From Deltaproteobacteria bacterium (lineage in GTDB: Bacteria > UBA10199 > DSSB01 > JACPFA01), in NCBI GenBank assembly GCA_016183235.1, contig JACPFA010000014.1, positions 1-64,000 of the forward strand: 64,000 nucleotides of DNA. The letters run 5' to 3'. A program made the position numbers and the translations under genes. This document shows positions 37,244 through 45,924 of the stretch, piece after piece. Under the pieces are notes generated by a model, which ran no database searches, had not been told where the DNA came from, and saw nothing but the letters and a program-made list of their open reading frames with translations. Numbering within the stretch: the first letter of the stretch is position 1; every line of letters starts with the position of its first letter.

Positions 37244-40207
37244 TTATATCTCGTGCTTCTTTAATTCACTCACCAAGTAGGCTTCTACCTTGCCAGAATT
37301 AAGAAAGTTAGTAAGCCGCCGAGTAATTAAGGCAAAGTCCGCTTCATTGAGTTGATTCGTTGGGTATGGTCTATAAAAATTTATTAATACAAGTGTTGTC
37401 TGTTCTATCTTCAGTTCGTTCAGTTGACGAACATATTTCCCGGATGGAGGCTTAAAATCTTCTGCTAAAAGTTGGTAAGGGTTCCCCCCTTCACGTTCCA
37501 TGACAATATCTTGCACTACATTACCAAAAATCTCTTCTAAAATAACCATCTGCATTTTCTTTTCAACTTCTGTAGCCTCTTCCTGCACCTCCATTTTTTC
37601 AAGTTCCAACTGTGATTGTTCCGCCGATAATGAGTCATAGGATACATCCGACAAAATATGAATGCCTTCATGAACAAGAACTCCTAAAACAAATATATCC
37701 GGATCAATGCCCTCCATGCGAGCATGTCGAACCAGGGCATTCATATTAAAATAAACCACACGGGAACCCTTATAGGTTGCAGCACCCACCCGCCCATTCA
37801 TAATCCACCTAACACTGAGAGGAATTTGAGGATCATCTTCATCGTAGGTTATAAACTGATATCCTTTTCCCTCGACAGCTTTAATTATTTTTTGAACCAC
37901 AGGGTATTTTTTGGCTAGTTTTTGGAGATCGGCCAAGAGGGTTTTATGTAGATCTTCCCCTTGATAACGTTGGAGTTGAGGGTCCACCACTTCTAATACA
38001 CCCCTTAATTGTTCAAGCTCAGATGAATAAAGATGTCTCACCCCTCCACTGCCAGGAGATTGAAAAGCAGTGGTCAAACCTGCTAAGGGGTTCGCCGTGT
38101 TTGTATTAAAAAAGGTCACATGAGAACCGCGGGTACGGGGATTATTAATCTGTAATTTTGTAAGATGTAAATCCATGGTCCATAAATGAGGAGCTCTTTC
38201 CTTAAAGACTTGAATGACCGCTTGATTATTTTCGTAAAAAGCACGGTCAAGGCAATTTGTAAGCCTAGATATTGATTCAAAAAGTAGTTCTCCTTGCCCC
38301 TCTTGGTTTTCCTGCTCTGAAAGGGTGATTACATTCGCATAATCGATGAGCTGAGTCGCCGCTGTTGGGGTTCCCAGGTAAGCAAGGTGACTCAACGAGC
38401 TTATAATCATATAAGCGTCATCCCAATCTCGATCATGGTCATAGTTATTACGCCCCTCTCCCTTTAAAAAATGGTTCAAACGGGCATCAATCGCCTGAGT
38501 TAAATATTTTTCAATGGTTTCATTAGGCGCATGGATGCCTTTTAAAATCCTAAAAATATAAGACTCATCTAAGTTATTTTTGTTTTGCAACTTTTGGCTG
38601 TCCCTAAAAGCTTGTCGTGTTACTCTATCAACAAAATCTAAAAATTCTGGGTGCGTCATTGAATGAATATCAACATCAAACCGTTTATTAACATCATCGG
38701 CAATAAAAAGTTCCTCTTTGGGAATTATAATCGGCCGTTCGGCAGGAGAAAGTTGATTGATTGTATGGATAAGTTGAGTTCGTTCTTCAGGGGTTAATTC
38801 TTGCACAAATAATTTGGCATAACTCTTTCGAGCCTCTGCGGGCTTTCCATCAACAATCGCATGGGCAAGGCCCGTTTGTTGCTCCTTAACTTGCTGTCGA
38901 AGCTGATCGTAAGCTCTTTGGCGGGTTGGGCCACGTTGCAAAAGATAAATTTCATAATCCCCTTGTAAAATCTTTTCTCCTTGTGGAGGGTCAAAATAAT
39001 CATGGGCATCCCCAAATATTTTGCTTGCCCCAGTCACCAAAGTTTCAAGACGTATCACATCTCCCACCTCAGGCTTTTTATCATCGACGTTGTCTGACAA
39101 GGGAGAAGGAACATAAGTTTGGTCAGCATGAACATAGATGAAAATTTTTCGACCATCGGATAATTGAAGAGTAATTTTCTTGTCTCTAGGCTTATGTGTT
39201 TCACCATCCCACCAAGTCACGGTCGTTTCATCAAGGATAGTCCCCTCTAAAACCATTTTGCTCCCATAGGGGAGATTGGCCACAACCCCAGGGGCTTCTA
39301 TACCCATGGGATTGGTGTCATAGGCTGGGGTGAGTGTTATTACTTTTGCCGGGTAGATAAACACATTTGAATAACCATATTTTCCATCACCCGTAATTTC
39401 AATCCCCCCCTTTAAAGGAATGCCTTGAAGGGCACCCCAACGTTGATATTCTTCCTTGGTCACAGAAATTAAATACTCATCCGTAAGTCTTCCATCAATA
39501 TCATTGGGACGGACCATAATTTGAGTGGGATCTTCCCTGCGAAAGTCTATGAAAAAAATCCCTTGAATTCGGTCGCCTTTTCGAAAAGGGGGTATTCTTG
39601 GATCTACTTCTTCAGAACGATTTTTCTGAATTTCAAATTTATCTTCAAAAGATAAATGACGCCCAGAACTAGAATCAGGCACTGGAAAAATGTTACCAAA
39701 CAATGCCCAATAAGGAACCCATCCTTCCATGGTTTCTATATTGGCATTTAAATCAGAGCGATATTGGTGATGATCATGGTCCAAAATTCGAACTAAGACA
39801 CAAGGCTGACCATCTATGATCTTAACATCTCTAGATAACAAAATGGCTGCATCGCCCTTATAAAATAAATCTAACCTTTTTTTGCCATGATCTATTCGGT
39901 TAAAATTACCATCTTCCAAAAAGTTTGTGGGATTGTTTAATTCTTTATCTTGAAGTAAATCCTGATAAAATCTTTCGGTTTGGGATGAATCTCTGATTTT
40001 TTGAATAAGATGGTGGGAAAATAAGGCGTGTTCTACAGAAATTCGTTGTTGATCGTCCCAGCCTTTCGGAAACAACTGAGCATCGATATAGCCATCTTCA
40101 TTGTGATCAATTTCTTTTACCTCGAGGCTTCCATCCCCATTAGCATCTAGCTGAACGAGGAGTTTCTGCACATCTTCATTTGGAGATAATGAACGAATGG
40201 GTTTCAT
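37244..40207 (-). CDS. Large unknown protein with EF-hand loops and an HExxH motif
   Basis: The 987-residue protein is not recognised as a whole. Two EF-hand-type loops lie at the N-terminus (D21-A-N-G-D-G-S-L-E-V-K-E and D34-H-N-E-D-G-Y-I-D-A). The middle is mixed alpha/beta with repeated beta-rich segments. Near the C-terminus VLVHEGIHILSDVSYDS contains HEGIH (846-850), and an EEIFGNVVQDIVME helix about 45 residues later could supply a glutamate, the pattern of a gluzincin-like metallopeptidase. No signal peptide is visible. It starts 2 bp after the 277-residue gene and is the last of three co-directional genes. Peptidase activity is an inference from one motif. Confidence 0.65.
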   Translation of the reverse strand: MKPIRSLSPNEDVQKLLVQLDANGDGSLEVKEIDHNEDGYIDAQLFPKGWDDQQRISVEHALFSHHLIQKIRDSSQTERFYQDLLQDKELNNPTNFLEDGNFNRIDHGKKRLDLFYKGDAAILLSRDVKIIDGQPCVLVRILDHDHHQYRSDLNANIETMEGWVPYWALFGNIFPVPDSSSGRHLSFEDKFEIQKNRSEEVDPRIPPFRKGDRIQGIFFIDFRREDPTQIMVRPNDIDGRLTDEYLISVTKEEYQRWGALQGIPLKGGIEITGDGKYGYSNVFIYPAKVITLTPAYDTNPMGIEAPGVVANLPYGSKMVLEGTILDETTVTWWDGETHKPRDKKITLQLSDGRKIFIYVHADQTYVPSPLSDNVDDKKPEVGDVIRLETLVTGASKIFGDAHDYFDPPQGEKILQGDYEIYLLQRGPTRQRAYDQLRQQVKEQQTGLAHAIVDGKPAEARKSYAKLFVQELTPEERTQLIHTINQLSPAERPIIIPKEELFIADDVNKRFDVDIHSMTHPEFLDFVDRVTRQAFRDSQKLQNKNNLDESYIFRILKGIHAPNETIEKYLTQAIDARLNHFLKGEGRNNYDHDRDWDDAYMIISSLSHLAYLGTPTAATQLIDYANVITLSEQENQEGQGELLFESISRLTNCLDRAFYENNQAVIQVFKERAPHLWTMDLHLTKLQINNPRTRGSHVTFFNTNTANPLAGLTTAFQSPGSGGVRHLYSSELEQLRGVLEVVDPQLQRYQGEDLHKTLLADLQKLAKKYPVVQKIIKAVEGKGYQFITYDEDDPQIPLSVRWIMNGRVGAATYKGSRVVYFNMNALVRHARMEGIDPDIFVLGVLVHEGIHILSDVSYDSLSAEQSQLELEKMEVQEEATEVEKKMQMVILEEIFGNVVQDIVMEREGGNPYQLLAEDFKPPSGKYVRQLNELKIEQTTLVLINFYRPYPTNQLNEADFALITRRLTNFLNSGKVEAYLVSELKKHEI

Positions 40208-40209
40208 AT

Positions 40210-41043
40210 TTATTTTTTAGGAATTTCTTGGAAATCTTCCACGATTAGGAGAGTTGTTGCGGCTTCATCATTAATGATTTTTTTTGCGGAAGCAAAAATT
40301 CTTACGAATTCAGACCTGTCATAATTGTAAGCAACAGACTCCTTTGAAATAGCTTGATATTCATCCCCCCTTTTCCGAAGGATCAACAGTTCATTTTGCT
40401 CGTTGCGAATGATTAAACTTAAAGTCCCTGTCCATATAATTGTTCCAACAAACGCTTCATCATTTAGTTTAAGGCTTACTTGATCGCCAACCTCCGGGGT
40501 TTTGCGATCAGCTTCTTTTAATGCAACGATCAATGTATCATCAACAACCGGTGAATCTGAATGAGATGAACTGAGATAACCTAAGGTTTGCAAAGCGCCT
40601 CGAACAGCAGCTATTTTGGCAGGCTCCAAGGGTTGAGCAAACTCATAAGCCCCATAATAGTTCTGTATAGGAGCACCAAATGAAGGGACCGGCCTTGCCT
40701 CAAATTTTCCTACATACTCACCTGAATCTGAATATTCTGATGGCACACAAGCTACCCCTGCATCAGAGCGTGGATAAAGCTGCCCTTCACGATCAAAGGC
40801 CCAATGAGTAACGGATTGTGTGCTGGTTCCTTTAATTGCTTCCTCTTGCAAATCAAGCGTGACCTCAACAAAACAGTTAGGATTTTCAGCCACGTTAATT
40901 TTGTCATGGCTTTTCCCCTCAGGGTTCATTTTGGGCAATTCAGTATCAACCCTTAAAGATAATCGGCCCCTGTCATAATATAATTCTGAATTCCCCTCTG
41001 GCAGCCCTAGATATTTGGCAATGACGCTAGCAACTCCCCCCAT
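40210..41043 (-). CDS. Unknown 277-aa protein with the shared N-terminal tag
   Basis: The protein opens with MGGVASVIAKYLGLPEGN, identical to the first 18 residues of the 1536-residue protein at 41207, and then diverges completely. The remainder looks beta-rich, with VSLKLNDEAFVGTIIWTGTL and LSLIIRNEQNELLILRKRG. No family is recognised. The shared start extends upstream: promoter, leader and ribosome-binding site (AAGGAG) are also nearly identical to those of the other gene. It lies directly before the EF-hand/HExxH gene, probably in one transcript. The tag could direct localisation or processing, or only mark a recent 5' duplication. Confidence 0.65.
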   Translation of the reverse strand: MGGVASVIAKYLGLPEGNSELYYDRGRLSLRVDTELPKMNPEGKSHDKINVAENPNCFVEVTLDLQEEAIKGTSTQSVTHWAFDREGQLYPRSDAGVACVPSEYSDSGEYVGKFEARPVPSFGAPIQNYYGAYEFAQPLEPAKIAAVRGALQTLGYLSSSHSDSPVVDDTLIVALKEADRKTPEVGDQVSLKLNDEAFVGTIIWTGTLSLIIRNEQNELLILRKRGDEYQAISKESVAYNYDRSEFVRIFASAKKIINDEAATTLLIVEDFQEIPKK

Positions 41044-41146
41044 AGCAATCTCCTTTTCAATCGTAAGTTAAGCTCCTGCTCTTGTTCTCGGCAAAAAGGA
41101 GATTTGAGTTCTCTAATCATGCACAAAGAGTATACAGATAGTATAC
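40981..41146 (-). repeat. Duplicated promoter-leader-tag block, copy A
   Basis: About 166 bp, including the operator-like palindrome, the leader, the ribosome-binding site and the first 21 codons of the 277-residue gene, are nearly identical to 45755-45924. The match stops just after the tag codons. The main differences are a 4-base length change and a few substitutions in the leader. Confidence 0.8.
41130..41146. promoter_or_regulatory. GTATAC-N5-GTATAC operator-like site, copy A
   Basis: GTATAC (41130-41135), AGATA and GTATAC (41141-41146) form a symmetric pair of self-complementary hexamers about 90 bp upstream of the 277-residue gene. TATACT on the leftward strand may also serve as a -10 box. 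The same 17 bp occur at 45908-45924. Confidence 0.5.
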
Positions 41147-41206
41147 ATGTGCTATTTTTGTGCCCTGCCTGATCAGTCTAAAAAATTGATGATATCCTAT
41201 TTCCTA

Positions 41207-44200
41207 TCAATCAATATCAATCAATTCAAAACGATCTTTTCCTTTTCCTTCATTGGGATTGGGAGTCGGAGAGGCCACTTTTTTGTCGGCCTTTGGCGCC
41301 ACCACGCCTGCACCACCGTCTTCTACCCACCCTTCTTCATGTGCCAACATGGTAAATCGTCCAGCCGGGGCTCCATCTTCATGACGAATACCTTTACGAG
41401 GGGAAGCTGCTTCTCTCTGAGGCTGGGGATTTCTAAGCGCAGCTTGGGGAGCTGGTGCCGGCTGGGCTCTTCTTATACGTCCCCTCTCTTGCAAAGATCG
41501 CAGCAAAGGTTCCATCCATTCGCCCACCCTCCGAAGACCATCCTGCGCACGCTCAGGCAGGAGTCTAGCCACAGCCATATCAGGGTTTCTTAGAGGTAAC
41601 AAAGCTCTTTCACCTAAGTGAAAATAGTTACCGATGACCAAATCTGTTAACCGACCCCCTAATTCCACTAGTTTTTCTGGAAGGTACAAGGCTACCCAGC
41701 GTTGCAGAGTTAGTACTTTATCGCCATGTTCCTGACTGCACCGTTTATTTTTGGGTAGCTCTGAAAATATTCTCACAATATGACCGGTGGTAAAATAGTC
41801 GGGGTGGGCTTTTAAAATAGAAGTTAAGCTTCTTAGGGAAAAACCTGTTTCTTGGCTAATCAGTTGATCGATGATGAGGCTCCTTAAATCAGGGCGCGCC
41901 ACAACAAGGTATGCTAGTGCATTTGCTGCCTTAGCACTTGCATGGCAAAGCGCGGCAAGTTCACGGACATGTCTTTGTGTTATTTCTTCAGGGTGCTCCA
42001 TCACGTGCTGACGCACAGAAGCTCTGACACCTCGATTAGTTTTGGCAGTTTCAATCAATCTTGAAAAATTATGATGGGCCTCTCGAATACTTCTGACAAA
42101 ACCAAGGCCTCGGGATGCCACAATTATAGCTTCTCGCAAATCAGAACGTCTTTCTGCAAGGTCTACCAAGGCTCTTGCTGCCTTGACGCTTGTCTTTGCA
42201 AGTTCGGCTAACGCTAAAATATGTGCCGGTTTTACCTGATCGGCGTGGTATCTTACGTGCTCGAGAACAGTAATCCGAGCGCTTCGATCAGTCTTAGCTC
42301 TTTGAATTAATTTTGAAAGCTCATCGAGCACACGGACTTCAGGCCCTTTAACAATGTCCTCCTCCTCAATATCATCGGTGTCAAGTAGGTCATCATCGGT
42401 GTCAAATGGGTCAAAGCCTTCAGCCCCAGACCCAAGAGCCTCCAGTTTAATGCTTTTTGCTCTGCGAATATCGCCTTCTAATGATGGATCGGAAATCCCA
42501 TCTAAAAATGATTTTATCGCCCCAGCTTGAGCTGGTGAAATCTTTTCGGCTATTGCTCCAAGTTTTTCTCTAGCTTTTTTATTACGTGGATTGATTGTGA
42601 GCGCGTATTGATAGTATTCAACGGCTTTTGTAAAATCCTGTTCTCCTTCATACATTTTTCCAAGAATTACATAAAGACCGGCAGTAGAGGGTAATAGCTC
42701 GATTGCTTTCTCAAATAATTCACGGGCCCTTGTGCGATTTCCCTGCAGTAAAGAAGCTGCTAAATTATTTATCCTCCCCACAAAGGAGAAATAAGCCGGC
42801 CTTGCTTGACATTCTTCTCCAGAAACACGGAGGTTAGGCTCAGCACTTGAAGCAGCTGCATAAGATCTTGTTGTTTCAACGACAAGGTCAGCGGCTTGGT
42901 AGTAGAGAAAAACATGCGATTGATAAGTTCTAACGGCAATGTCTAAATGTGCGAGTGATGCAAAATGTGCAAATAAAATGGTCAAGTTTTCACATACTCC
43001 CTCGCCTGACAAAATAAGATTTGTAAACGAAACATCAGACTCCACATATCGGTTTAATTTTCGAGAATTGAGAAATCTAGACACTTGGTATAGACCAAAT
43101 AAGTTGTCGAGTAAGCTTGAGTTTGTTTGAGCCGTCTCTAAAAGAACTTTAAATTCTTCAGGCATGTATTCGCCAACGAGGCCCTCTTGTTTTAAGTAAT
43201 CCGCTACAAGGGTCAGTTTTTCATGCATAGTAACGGTGGATGGATCTTTATAATAATGAAAAAACTCCCTTTCAAGCGCTGCAAGCCTGCCCCTGGCCTC
43301 AGAAAAATTACCTTGATGAGCACGATCGAGATGCAATTCTTCCCATGCAATAACCAAATCAGCTAAATTACCGGATGCATAGGCCCTTTCTAATGCTGCA
43401 AGTGCTTCCTCTCGAGGAAGGGCTAAGATATTCTTGGCGATCTCTTCAACTGATACCGCAGTTTTCCTTGCAACTAGAGCTTGATATTTTGGGGAAGGCG
43501 CAATCTCCGGCGAACTTTGCTCTGTTGAGGTAAATCGTATGCTCGTTTCATCAATGGTTACTAAAATTTCTAATTTACTAAGATGGTCTTTAATCACATC
43601 ACCATCCTGTAGTAGTTGTCCCCAAGATCTAATACGCAGTTCAGCTCCATCTCTTTCAACAACAAGCGCTCTGGGATACCCGAAGACCACCTCACCTAGA
43701 CTAATCCATGCCCCACTTAAATCAGTCTCCACTTTAACTTGGGGAGGAAGCTTCGCTGCTCCTATTAGAGACTTCATCTCTCTTGGCGCTGTTGTAGTTT
43801 CAAAATGACCTTTGCCCCCCTCTATTTCAAACCTGAAATGGGTATCATAAATCGAGATAATGTCCCCCGGTTCTAAGGCCGTACAAACATCTTCTTCAAT
43901 TCTCCAGCTCTTGTTATCTCGAGTTACAATAGTGGATCTATCAGGGTAATTATTTGCTATCCAATAAGAGCCATCGGTATCAATCTTGACTACAGCATGA
44001 TAACTTCTTGCCCTCGCATCATGGACAATGATTCCATTTTCGCCTGGGTTTCTACCTATGTAGAACTTCCCATCAAAAGCATAGTCCCTGGGCAAAGTTG
44101 CCACTGGTTTGTTTGTCTTCGCTTCCCCATCCGCCCCATCCGCTGGTGCACTGGCTGGACTTCCAGAGTCAGCCGAATTAACAATTTTAAGACCTTTAAG

Positions 44201-45817
44201 CGAAGGTTCCGTGTTATCGGGTGAAGATGAATCCTCCCGCAATTGCCCCAACCTAAACCCCAGCAATCTTGCTAGATCTTCATTTCCATTAGACTTGTGC
44301 CTTTGGATCTCACTTTCTAGCCACCCAATCATCCGTCGGCGTTCCTCTTCTTTGCTTTTAGCGTCTTCTGCTTGACGTTGTGTCAAGCGTTCTTGAGCTA
44401 AGCGCTCACTGTCAGTTAAAGCATTTCCTCTCCAAAGCGTAGGAATCCCAGGCTTTGATGATGATGCTTCCGGTCTTGAGCTAGTCTTTGCTTGGGGGTT
44501 CAAATAGGTCATGCCTACGGGAGCTGGGTTAGTTTGGTTAGTTTGAATTAGAAAATAAGCTGCTTGGTTTGTTGGCTTAGGCCCGCTTGCCTGATTGATA
44601 ACCCAAGGCGCCGCTGGAGCAGAGGGCGGCACAACAGGTGCCGGCCTAGCCGGTTCTGGTGTTGGGGCTGTCGGTTGATTCAGAGAAATTAGAGATCGCT
44701 TCCAAGGAATTCCAGACGAAAATGGCTTGGCATCCGCGTATGCCCGATATCTTCGTGAAGAATTGCCTCGCCCAAGCTGGAAATAAATACTGTTGATGCG
44801 CTCTTCTATAGAAGTTCGTGGATTTCTAATGTAACCCAGCTGGCTGGAAGCCCGTGGTGTGCGAGATGTCTTCGGCCGGGCTTTTTTGGAAAACTTCGAA
44901 TCCGGCTTCGGCTCTCTTCCTGAGGGCTCTGGTTTCTGAGCTCGGTAATCTCGCCGCTCTTCTGTGGATGTTCTATCCCGAGGGTTAGGGCTTATCCTGG
45001 CATCCGGCACATCCGGTAAGGTACCTTTCTTAGCTCCATTGATTTTCCCCACTCTGGCAGCTCCCGCAGCCAAGGCAACGTCTCCCAAGGCCGAGCCAGC
45101 GTTCCACCAATCCAGGTCGGTAGTAGCTTCTACTTGGGGCCAGACAAAAGAGCTTTCCAAGCGAATTCCATCTTCAAGCAGGAGTTTCATTACGATACTG
45201 CTTTCTCGACTTCCAACCCGGGTAATCGCGCCTTCTTCGATAATCTCCATTTGAGCAAACTCTTCACGGGGGATGCTAAAGGCAAAGGGTTTTCCTTCAG
45301 CCAAGGCACTCCGAAATTCAGTCGAGCGGTCTTTAGAATCTGAGTCTCTTAGCTTGCCTACAATCATCCGGCGCGAGCCCTTGGCTTGAGGATCCACAAG
45401 GAGATAAATGGTATTACTTTTAGGTTCCACTAAAACAATGGGATCAGGGCTTCCATCCGCCAAGCGAATCAGATCTTCTTGAATCTGGGCCAGCGATCCG
45501 TACTCCGGTATCATTTCACCAGCAGCTCGAGGAACCTCTGCTAGCATTTTATCCAAGCCCTCCAAGTTCAGCGAAGAAACTTTTTCGGATAGTTTTCCAA
45601 ATAAAGTCAGGCCTTGAGAAGCTAGCTTCGGCAAAGGACCCAGGAAGTATTGCAACACTTTAAATGTAGAGACCGGCTCTTGATCAACAGTTAATTTACT
45701 TAACTCGAGGGGGGTGTCAGTATGCTCACCCACGGGCAAACCAGTTTCACGACCTAATTCTGCATTCCCCTCTGGCAGCCCTAGATATTTGGCAATGACG
45801 CTAGCAACTCCCCCCAT
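41207..45817 (-). CDS. Giant FHA/transglutaminase-like/TPR protein with the shared N-terminal tag
   Basis: The 1536-residue protein begins MGGVASVIAKYLGLPEGN. A low-complexity proline/arginine-rich stretch spans about 280-450. An FHA domain lies at about 575-665 (FYIGRNPGENGIIVHDARAR, then SYHAVVKIDTDGSYWIANN), suggesting phosphothreonine binding. A transglutaminase-like segment follows (SGEGVCENLTILFAHFASLA with Cys near 942 and YQSHVFLYY with His near 967). A TPR block lies at about 1030-1085 (LYVILGKMYEGEQDFTKAVE). Two helical repeats of about 66 residues begin near 1169 and 1252 (IQRAKTDRSARITVLEHV; IETAKTNRGVRASVRQHV). No signal peptide is seen. The combination suggests a signalling or effector scaffold; its function is unknown. 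Confidence 0.7.
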   Translation of the reverse strand: MGGVASVIAKYLGLPEGNAELGRETGLPVGEHTDTPLELSKLTVDQEPVSTFKVLQYFLGPLPKLASQGLTLFGKLSEKVSSLNLEGLDKMLAEVPRAAGEMIPEYGSLAQIQEDLIRLADGSPDPIVLVEPKSNTIYLLVDPQAKGSRRMIVGKLRDSDSKDRSTEFRSALAEGKPFAFSIPREEFAQMEIIEEGAITRVGSRESSIVMKLLLEDGIRLESSFVWPQVEATTDLDWWNAGSALGDVALAAGAARVGKINGAKKGTLPDVPDARISPNPRDRTSTEERRDYRAQKPEPSGREPKPDSKFSKKARPKTSRTPRASSQLGYIRNPRTSIEERINSIYFQLGRGNSSRRYRAYADAKPFSSGIPWKRSLISLNQPTAPTPEPARPAPVVPPSAPAAPWVINQASGPKPTNQAAYFLIQTNQTNPAPVGMTYLNPQAKTSSRPEASSSKPGIPTLWRGNALTDSERLAQERLTQRQAEDAKSKEEERRRMIGWLESEIQRHKSNGNEDLARLLGFRLGQLREDSSSPDNTEPSLKGLKIVNSADSGSPASAPADGADGEAKTNKPVATLPRDYAFDGKFYIGRNPGENGIIVHDARARSYHAVVKIDTDGSYWIANNYPDRSTIVTRDNKSWRIEEDVCTALEPGDIISIYDTHFRFEIEGGKGHFETTTAPREMKSLIGAAKLPPQVKVETDLSGAWISLGEVVFGYPRALVVERDGAELRIRSWGQLLQDGDVIKDHLSKLEILVTIDETSIRFTSTEQSSPEIAPSPKYQALVARKTAVSVEEIAKNILALPREEALAALERAYASGNLADLVIAWEELHLDRAHQGNFSEARGRLAALEREFFHYYKDPSTVTMHEKLTLVADYLKQEGLVGEYMPEEFKVLLETAQTNSSLLDNLFGLYQVSRFLNSRKLNRYVESDVSFTNLILSGEGVCENLTILFAHFASLAHLDIAVRTYQSHVFLYYQAADLVVETTRSYAAASSAEPNLRVSGEECQARPAYFSFVGRINNLAASLLQGNRTRARELFEKAIELLPSTAGLYVILGKMYEGEQDFTKAVEYYQYALTINPRNKKAREKLGAIAEKISPAQAGAIKSFLDGISDPSLEGDIRRAKSIKLEALGSGAEGFDPFDTDDDLLDTDDIEEEDIVKGPEVRVLDELSKLIQRAKTDRSARITVLEHVRYHADQVKPAHILALAELAKTSVKAARALVDLAERRSDLREAIIVASRGLGFVRSIREAHHNFSRLIETAKTNRGVRASVRQHVMEHPEEITQRHVRELAALCHASAKAANALAYLVVARPDLRSLIIDQLISQETGFSLRSLTSILKAHPDYFTTGHIVRIFSELPKNKRCSQEHGDKVLTLQRWVALYLPEKLVELGGRLTDLVIGNYFHLGERALLPLRNPDMAVARLLPERAQDGLRRVGEWMEPLLRSLQERGRIRRAQPAPAPQAALRNPQPQREAASPRKGIRHEDGAPAGRFTMLAHEEGWVEDGGAGVVAPKADKKVASPTPNPNEGKGKDRFELIDID

Positions 45818-45924
45818 GGCAATCTCCTTTTCAACCGTAAGTTAGGTGCCTGCTCTTTTTCTTTCTCGGCAAAAAGGAGATTTGAGTTCTCTAATCATGC
45901 ACAAAGAGTATACAGATAGTATAC
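45755..45924 (-). repeat. Duplicated promoter-leader-tag block, copy B
   Basis: This is the counterpart of 40981-41146, in front of and inside the 1536-residue gene. The first 21 codons differ by one amino acid (Ala for Ser at residue 19), while the codons after them are unrelated. Confidence 0.8.
45908..45924. promoter_or_regulatory. GTATAC-N5-GTATAC operator-like site, copy B
   Basis: Same 17-bp arrangement as at 41130-41146, about 90 bp upstream of the 1536-residue gene. It lies only 9 bp from the elbB stop codon, so the giant gene must carry its own promoter in this short gap. Confidence 0.5.

What the first reader, a model, noticed from the sequence alone, without database searches (positions are those of the whole stretch)
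40981..45924. Two unrelated large proteins share an identical promoter, leader and 18-residue N-terminal tag
The 277- and 1536-residue proteins both begin MGGVASVIAKYLGLPEGN and then share nothing. The 166-170 bp block upstream and into the tag (operator GTATAC-N5-GTATAC, leader, AAGGAG, 21 codons) is nearly identical. This looks like a modular 5' cassette that puts different cargo under one control and one N-terminal tag. The tag could be a sorting, encapsulation or processing signal. A neutral alternative is a simple recent duplication of a gene's 5' end.
Basis: partly seen in the sequence, partly recalled or inferred. Interest (0 to 1): 0.78.

Follow-up and report, generated by a model that had tools for sequence, protein, structure and literature searches.

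The report
Regulon promoter copied onto unrelated genes
Two neighbouring unrelated genes share the same on-switch plus the first 21 codons, most likely because one gene's front end was copied; the on-switch is one of about 20 in this uncultured bacterium that look like targets of an uncharacterised family of gene regulators (DUF4423/TIGR02147), for which a DNA-binding site can now be proposed.

Summary
In detail: a ~170-bp block (promoter 0/58 differences, 5'UTR 6/45 plus a 4-nt indel, 18-codon tag 0/54) precedes the 277- and 1536-aa genes, which then share nothing. The interpretation splits. (1) The control half is a true module. GTATAC-N5-GTATAC occurs 19 times in this UBA10199 genome (about 0.2 expected; 0-1 in each of 45 relatives). 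A CCGATAA-like -10 usually follows at 37-38 or 47-49 bp, one helical turn apart, and most sites precede unrelated lineage-specific genes. Across the class, boxes of this design lie just upstream of DUF4423/TIGR02147 regulator genes, and box letters vary with the regulator's predicted HTH residues. So the block is most likely a DUF4423-regulator box plus core promoter. (2) The tag half is found only at these two loci, so 5'-end duplication (promoter capture) is the best account; a third copy (C25, 76%) carries promoter and UTR without the tag. Whether the tag does anything is open. The genome holds a type III secretion-like cluster whose operons carry a similar core promoter, so an export signal spread by terminal reassortment is not excluded. 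Microcompartment targeting is unlikely: no shell gene was found.

The parts
45908..45924 (-). operator GTATAC-N5-GTATAC of the 1536-aa gene (proposed DUF4423-regulator box)
   Evidence: class-wide link to DUF4423 genes
45886..45889 (-). -35-like GAAC, 17 bp before the -10 (weak element)
   Evidence: read from sequence; promoter alignment
45863..45868 (-). -10-like CGAGAA (within GCCGAGAA), 37 bp after the operator counted from the 8-mer
45824..45829 (-). Shine-Dalgarno AAGGAG of the 1536-aa gene
45764..45817 (-). 18-codon tag MGGVASVIAKYLGLPEGN, copy 1
41207..45817 (-). 1536-aa protein: tag, low-complexity region, weak FHA-like domain (586-656), TPR (~1023-1092), helical C-terminal region partly shared with a C38 protein
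41130..41146 (-). operator GTATAC-N5-GTATAC of the 277-aa gene
41108..41111 (-). -35-like GAAC, second copy
   Evidence: read from sequence
41085..41090 (-). -10-like CGAGAA, second copy
41050..41055 (-). Shine-Dalgarno AAGGAG of the 277-aa gene
40990..41043 (-). 18-codon tag, copy 2 (54/54 nt identical to copy 1)
40210..41043 (-). 277-aa protein; no relative found in the class, in GTDB contigs or on plasmids
37244..40207 (-). 987-aa protein with EF-hand-like N-terminus, 2 bp after the 277-aa gene, probably the same operon

Best explanation
The shared block is a complete expression unit: a 17-bp palindromic operator, a core promoter with a CCGATAA-type -10, a short 5'UTR, a Shine-Dalgarno and the first ~21 codons. 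It belongs to a genome-wide regulon whose operator is most likely bound by the DUF4423/TIGR02147 regulator encoded at C34:9590-10414, probably as an activator that meets RNA polymerase from one helical face at distances about one turn apart. One gene's 5' end was copied about 4.8 kb away and so brought the 277-aa/987-aa operon into the regulon; the tag came along as the first codons of the copy. Shown: the block, the genome-wide set of sites, the preferred spacings, the link of this operator class to DUF4423 genes, and the absence of the tag elsewhere in what was searched. Inferred: that this particular regulator binds here, that it activates, that duplication made the second copy, and that the tag is a passenger.
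For: 19 exact sites against 0 for the reversed pattern and 0-1 in each of 45 relatives. -10 at phased spacings in 24/37 sites versus 1.05 in shuffles (windows chosen after seeing the data). 5 of 26 one-mismatch GTATAC sites and 11 of 28 exact GTATTC-N5-GAATAC sites lie within 200 bp upstream of TIGR02147 genes. 18 of 80 TIGR02147 upstream regions have >=10/12 matches, about 1.1 expected. Box letters vary with predicted recognition-helix residues. Same box, 48 bp, TTCGATAA before a lipoprotein in an order-level relative, with a DUF4423 gene two genes downstream. Tag only at these two loci. Promoter+UTR copied a third time without the tag. Further promoter duplications at C8 and C26.
Against: No binding or transcription data. 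Only one of the two own DUF4423 genes carries the GTATAC box. Some sites (C12, C17, C36, C29) lack a clear -10 or an obvious target. The tag (0/54) is more conserved than the UTR (6/45; P=0.007), which leaves room for selection on the tag, although three UTR changes are clustered and may be one event. The direction and mechanism of copying cannot be read from one genome.
Confidence: 0.72

Rival explanations
1. The tag is a working N-terminal export signal for the type III secretion-like system of this genome, and the block spread by terminal reassortment: promoter plus signal joined to new cargo, as known for type III effectors.
For: The genome has a T3SS-like cluster with SctJ-type lipoprotein, SctN, SctT, SctS and a FliA/WhiG-type sigma factor; three operons there carry a similar core promoter. 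Neither tagged protein has a Sec signal by eye. The tag is unchanged while the UTR drifted. The 987-aa N-terminal module recurs on different bodies in other families behind similar promoters. Shared N-terminal secretion signals between effector families are described for Pseudomonas (PMC6460904).
Against: Only two tagged proteins, side by side. About half the regulon are lipoproteins or Sec-type proteins. The T3SS operons lack the GTATAC box. The tag's composition was not tested with an effector predictor; its hydrophobic moment is unremarkable (P=0.25).
Confidence: 0.15
2. The second copy is a purely neutral recent 5'-end duplication with no regulatory meaning.
For: Two copies only, near-identical even at synonymous sites; tag absent from relatives.
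Against: The block starts exactly at an operator that recurs 19 times, and the promoter half exists as an older third copy before an expressed-looking gene; the copied promoter has all parts in register.
Confidence: 0.1
3. The operator works mainly as a repressor site rather than an activator site.
For: Autoregulatory boxes upstream of DUF4423 genes and a close 15-bp spacing at C34 would also suit repression.
Against: Most sites lie 37-49 bp upstream of the -10, outside the usual footprint of polymerase on -35/-10, with helical phasing.
Confidence: 0.25
4. The tag is an encapsulation peptide for a bacterial microcompartment.
For: Length and N-terminal position resemble such peptides (general knowledge).
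Against: No BMC shell protein (PF00936) in a 98%-complete genome while positive controls ring; weak amphipathicity. Encapsulin was not tested.
Confidence: 0.02

Closest known systems
TIGR02147 (Fsuc_second) / PF14394 DUF4423 protein family
   Same: The C34 gene is a member (PF14394 E=4.9e-35; TIGR02147 above cut-off), and genes of this family across the class carry boxes of the same design.
   Different: No DNA target was found for the family in the literature held here: no paper names TIGR02147 and one lists DUF4423 in passing.
Controller (C) proteins and XRE/lambda-repressor-type regulators with short palindromic operators
   Same: 17-bp palindrome, autoregulatory position, N-terminal helical domain with weak fold matches to XRE-type proteins such as C.Esp1396I.
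   Different: Fold E-values are weak (0.3-0.9); the DUF4423 part has no solved relative by sequence.
Terminal reassortment of type III effectors (Stavrinides et al. 2006, cited in PMC6460904)
   Same: Shared promoter plus N-terminal stretch joined to unrelated bodies.
   Different: Two copies only, no evidence of export, lipoproteins and Sec proteins in the same regulon.
Needleless T3SS* of Myxococcus (PMC12075869)
   Same: T3SS basal-body genes; no secretin or needle was recognised among the proteins scanned here.
   Different: No Kil/Tad link examined; a FliG-like part is present; SctU and SctV were not found in the region examined; function unknown.

Membership tests
DUF4423/TIGR02147-controlled promoter | operator of the class found upstream of DUF4423 genes | tested here: met
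   identical 12 fixed bases at the own C34 regulator gene
DUF4423/TIGR02147-controlled promoter | -10 CCGATAA-like at a phased distance | tested here: met
   GCCGAGAA at 37 bp in both window copies
DUF4423/TIGR02147-controlled promoter | physical binding of the regulator | not testable with these tools
   needs gel shift or footprint
Type III effector made by terminal reassortment | T3SS present in the genome | tested here: inconclusive
   T3SS-like cluster with SctJ, SctN, SctT, SctS; secretin, needle, SctU and SctV not found in the 40 kb examined
Type III effector made by terminal reassortment | N-terminal signal shared by several otherwise unrelated cargos | tested here: inconclusive
   two cargos only
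Type III effector made by terminal reassortment | secretion of the protein | not testable with these tools
   needs experiment
Microcompartment cargo | shell protein genes in the genome | tested here: not met
   PF00936 absent
5'-end duplication | tag limited to near-identical copies in one genome | tested here: met
   the promoter half has an older third copy

The most novel reading that the evidence does not exclude
A FliA/WhiG-type sigma factor of a T3SS-like locus and a DUF4423 activator jointly run a 'promoter plus N-terminal export signal' cassette that adds new lineage-specific cargo to a type III export pathway by terminal reassortment in the uncultured phylum UBA10199.
Probability: 0.13. 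Interest if true: 0.82.

Novelty: new variant of a known kind. Interest (0 to 1): 0.55.

Why it matters
TIGR02147/DUF4423 proteins occur in 37 of 46 genomes of this class, yet no function for them was found in the literature held here. A concrete operator, variants of it matched to recognition residues, a phased core promoter and a regulon of lipoproteins and large lineage-specific proteins make the family directly testable. The window pair shows how an unrelated operon can be drawn into such a regulon by copying a promoter together with a gene's first codons.

Tried and rejected
SD-sequestering RNA leader: AATCTCCTTTT upstream can pair with AAAAGGAGATT at the SD, but the upstream arm lies between the inferred -35 and -10 and is probably not transcribed, so it was dropped. 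Microcompartment tag: no shell gene. Homology beyond the tag: none. Single-sequence fold of the 277-aa protein: pLDDT 43, uninformative. Relatives of the 277-aa protein: none in the class, in GTDB contigs or on plasmids. Operator plus spaced CGATAA in 84,980 species: 11 hits, one per contig, only one of them in UBA10199, the rest about what chance would give. N-myristoylation-like MGxxxS start: not shared by the other MG-starting proteins, taken as coincidence. Sequence search of solved structures for the 987-aa protein and the regulator: nothing useful.

Full report
Observation. Both proteins start MGGVASVIAKYLGLPEGN and the ~170-bp block is present at the stated places. By segment the copies differ at 0/58 promoter positions, 6/45 UTR positions plus a 4-nt indel, and 0/54 tag positions. 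Similarity starts at the first base of the operator and ends near codon 21. In the whole genome the second copy scores E=2e-69; a third region, C25:54392-54477, matches the promoter and UTR at 76% (E=6.5e-8) but not the coding part. The C25 copy stands before a matrixin-like secreted protein.

The operator is genome-wide. GTATAC-N5-GTATAC occurs 19 times in this 2.6-Mb genome against none for the reversed control, about 0.16 expected for 12 fixed bases at equal base frequencies, and 0-1 times in each of 45 other genomes of the class. Five further own sites have one mismatch. Most stand 30-130 bp upstream of an ORF: small lipoproteins, a 1493-aa protein with thrombospondin-type repeats, a LamG protein, a beta-propeller lipoprotein, several large proteins without a Sec signal by eye, and one DUF4423 regulator. 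Apart from a helical domain shared by the 1536-aa protein and a C38 protein, and the tag itself, the direct targets compared are unrelated.

The 'leader' is mostly core promoter. A -10-like CGATAA, CGAAAA or CGAGAA follows the operator at 47-49 bp in most sites, at 37-38 bp in the window pair, C11 and C25, and at 15 bp at C34. Over own and class sites, 24 of 37 fall in phased windows versus 1.05 in shuffles (the windows were chosen after seeing the data), and the spacings cluster on one helical face (redundant sites inflate this, and unique spacings alone give only P about 0.05). A weak -35-like (G/C/A)AAC lies ~17 bp before the -10. The geometry suggests an activator at about -60 and -71 from the start site (inference).

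Who binds. In other class genomes near-matches sit just upstream of TIGR02147/DUF4423 genes: 5 of 26 one-mismatch GTATAC sites, and 11 of 28 exact GTATTC-N5-GAATAC sites across the class, lie within 200 bp upstream, where less than 0.01 would be expected by position alone. Of 80 DUF4423 upstream regions 18 carry >=10/12 matches, about 1.1 expected. Relatives show GTATTC, GTGTTC and GTACCC versions, several followed by CCGATAA at 38 bp. GTATTC boxes mostly go with regulators reading SPNFLKLVI.GKRNL, GTATAC boxes with LKLVMDGER or close variants. The model of the C34 protein has a confident N-terminal helical domain with weak fold matches to small XRE-type DNA-binding proteins; the rest is less certain. 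The order-level relative G006 (isolate HKST-UBA10199, named through) has the same box, 48 bp, TTCGATAA, then two lipoproteins and a DUF4423 gene.

The tag. It is absent as an exact peptide from the 59 relatives searched and from IMG/VR, and protein searches find only these two carriers in the class. The 277-aa body has no relative anywhere searched. The simplest history is a 5'-end duplication that brought the 277/987 operon under the regulon. The genome shows other promoter duplications: two lipoprotein paralogues with the same operator and near-identical promoters at C8, separated by a further ORF (transposase-like by its look, not tested), and a C26 pair in which a 234-aa protein is 66% identical to the first 222 residues of its 613-aa neighbour, behind near-identical promoters.

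A possible export link. The only FliQ/SctS gene lies in a cluster with a SctJ-type lipoprotein, SctN, SctT, FliN/FliG-like parts and a FliA/WhiG-type sigma factor that scores below the strict family cut-off. Three operons there carry (G/A)(C/A)AACT-spacer-CGATAA promoters. In ~450 kb (the window and regions not chosen for the operator) similar promoters precede many lineage-specific proteins, often starting MG (6/17 versus 24/345, P=0.001, post hoc). The 987-aa protein's N-terminal module recurs on different bodies in other families behind such promoters. This keeps the export-signal reading alive but does not show it; that the sigma factor reads these promoters is inference from the sigma-28-like -10.

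Verdict. Real; the control module is supported and attributed to a DUF4423 regulator; the tag is best seen as the first codons of a duplicated 5' end, with its function undecided.

Noticed in passing
L214/L215 = G000:C42:~64.7-85.3 kb: Non-flagellar or intermediate type III secretion-like cluster (SctJ, SctN, SctT, SctS, FliN/FliG-like) with a FliA/WhiG-type sigma factor and three CGATAA-type promoters.
   Followed up: partly
L225:4583 and L225:5379 (G000:C26): Tandem genes behind near-identical promoters; the 234-aa protein matches the first 222 residues of its 613-aa neighbour, a second case of promoter plus N-terminal duplication.
   Followed up: partly
L189:2435-5110 (G000:C8): Two lipoprotein paralogues with the same operator and near-identical promoter copies, separated by another ORF that looks transposase-like.
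   Followed up: partly
window 37244-40207; L220, L221, L222: The EF-hand-like N-terminal module (residues ~4-79) of the 987-aa protein recurs on otherwise different proteins in other families, each with a GCAAC..CGATA-type promoter upstream.
   Followed up: partly
L058:4508-4654 (G000:C25): A 48-codon ORF sits between the third promoter copy and the matrixin-like gene.
   Followed up: no
L063:4563-5977 (G000:C11): The gene behind the C11 operator looks broken into three short ORFs.
   Followed up: no
window ~24138 (-): A CAAC-spacer-CGATAA promoter-like sequence precedes a 638-aa gene with a signal-peptide-like start elsewhere in the window.
   Followed up: no
L053:9249-9521 and L064:4863-5150: A similar ORF fragment (84% over 69 aa) at the ends of two contigs, probably a repeated gene that broke the assembly.
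   Followed up: no
L225, L230, L233, L240, L241: Proteins behind CGATAA-type promoters start MG more often than others (6/17 versus 24/345, P=0.001, post hoc).
   Followed up: partly
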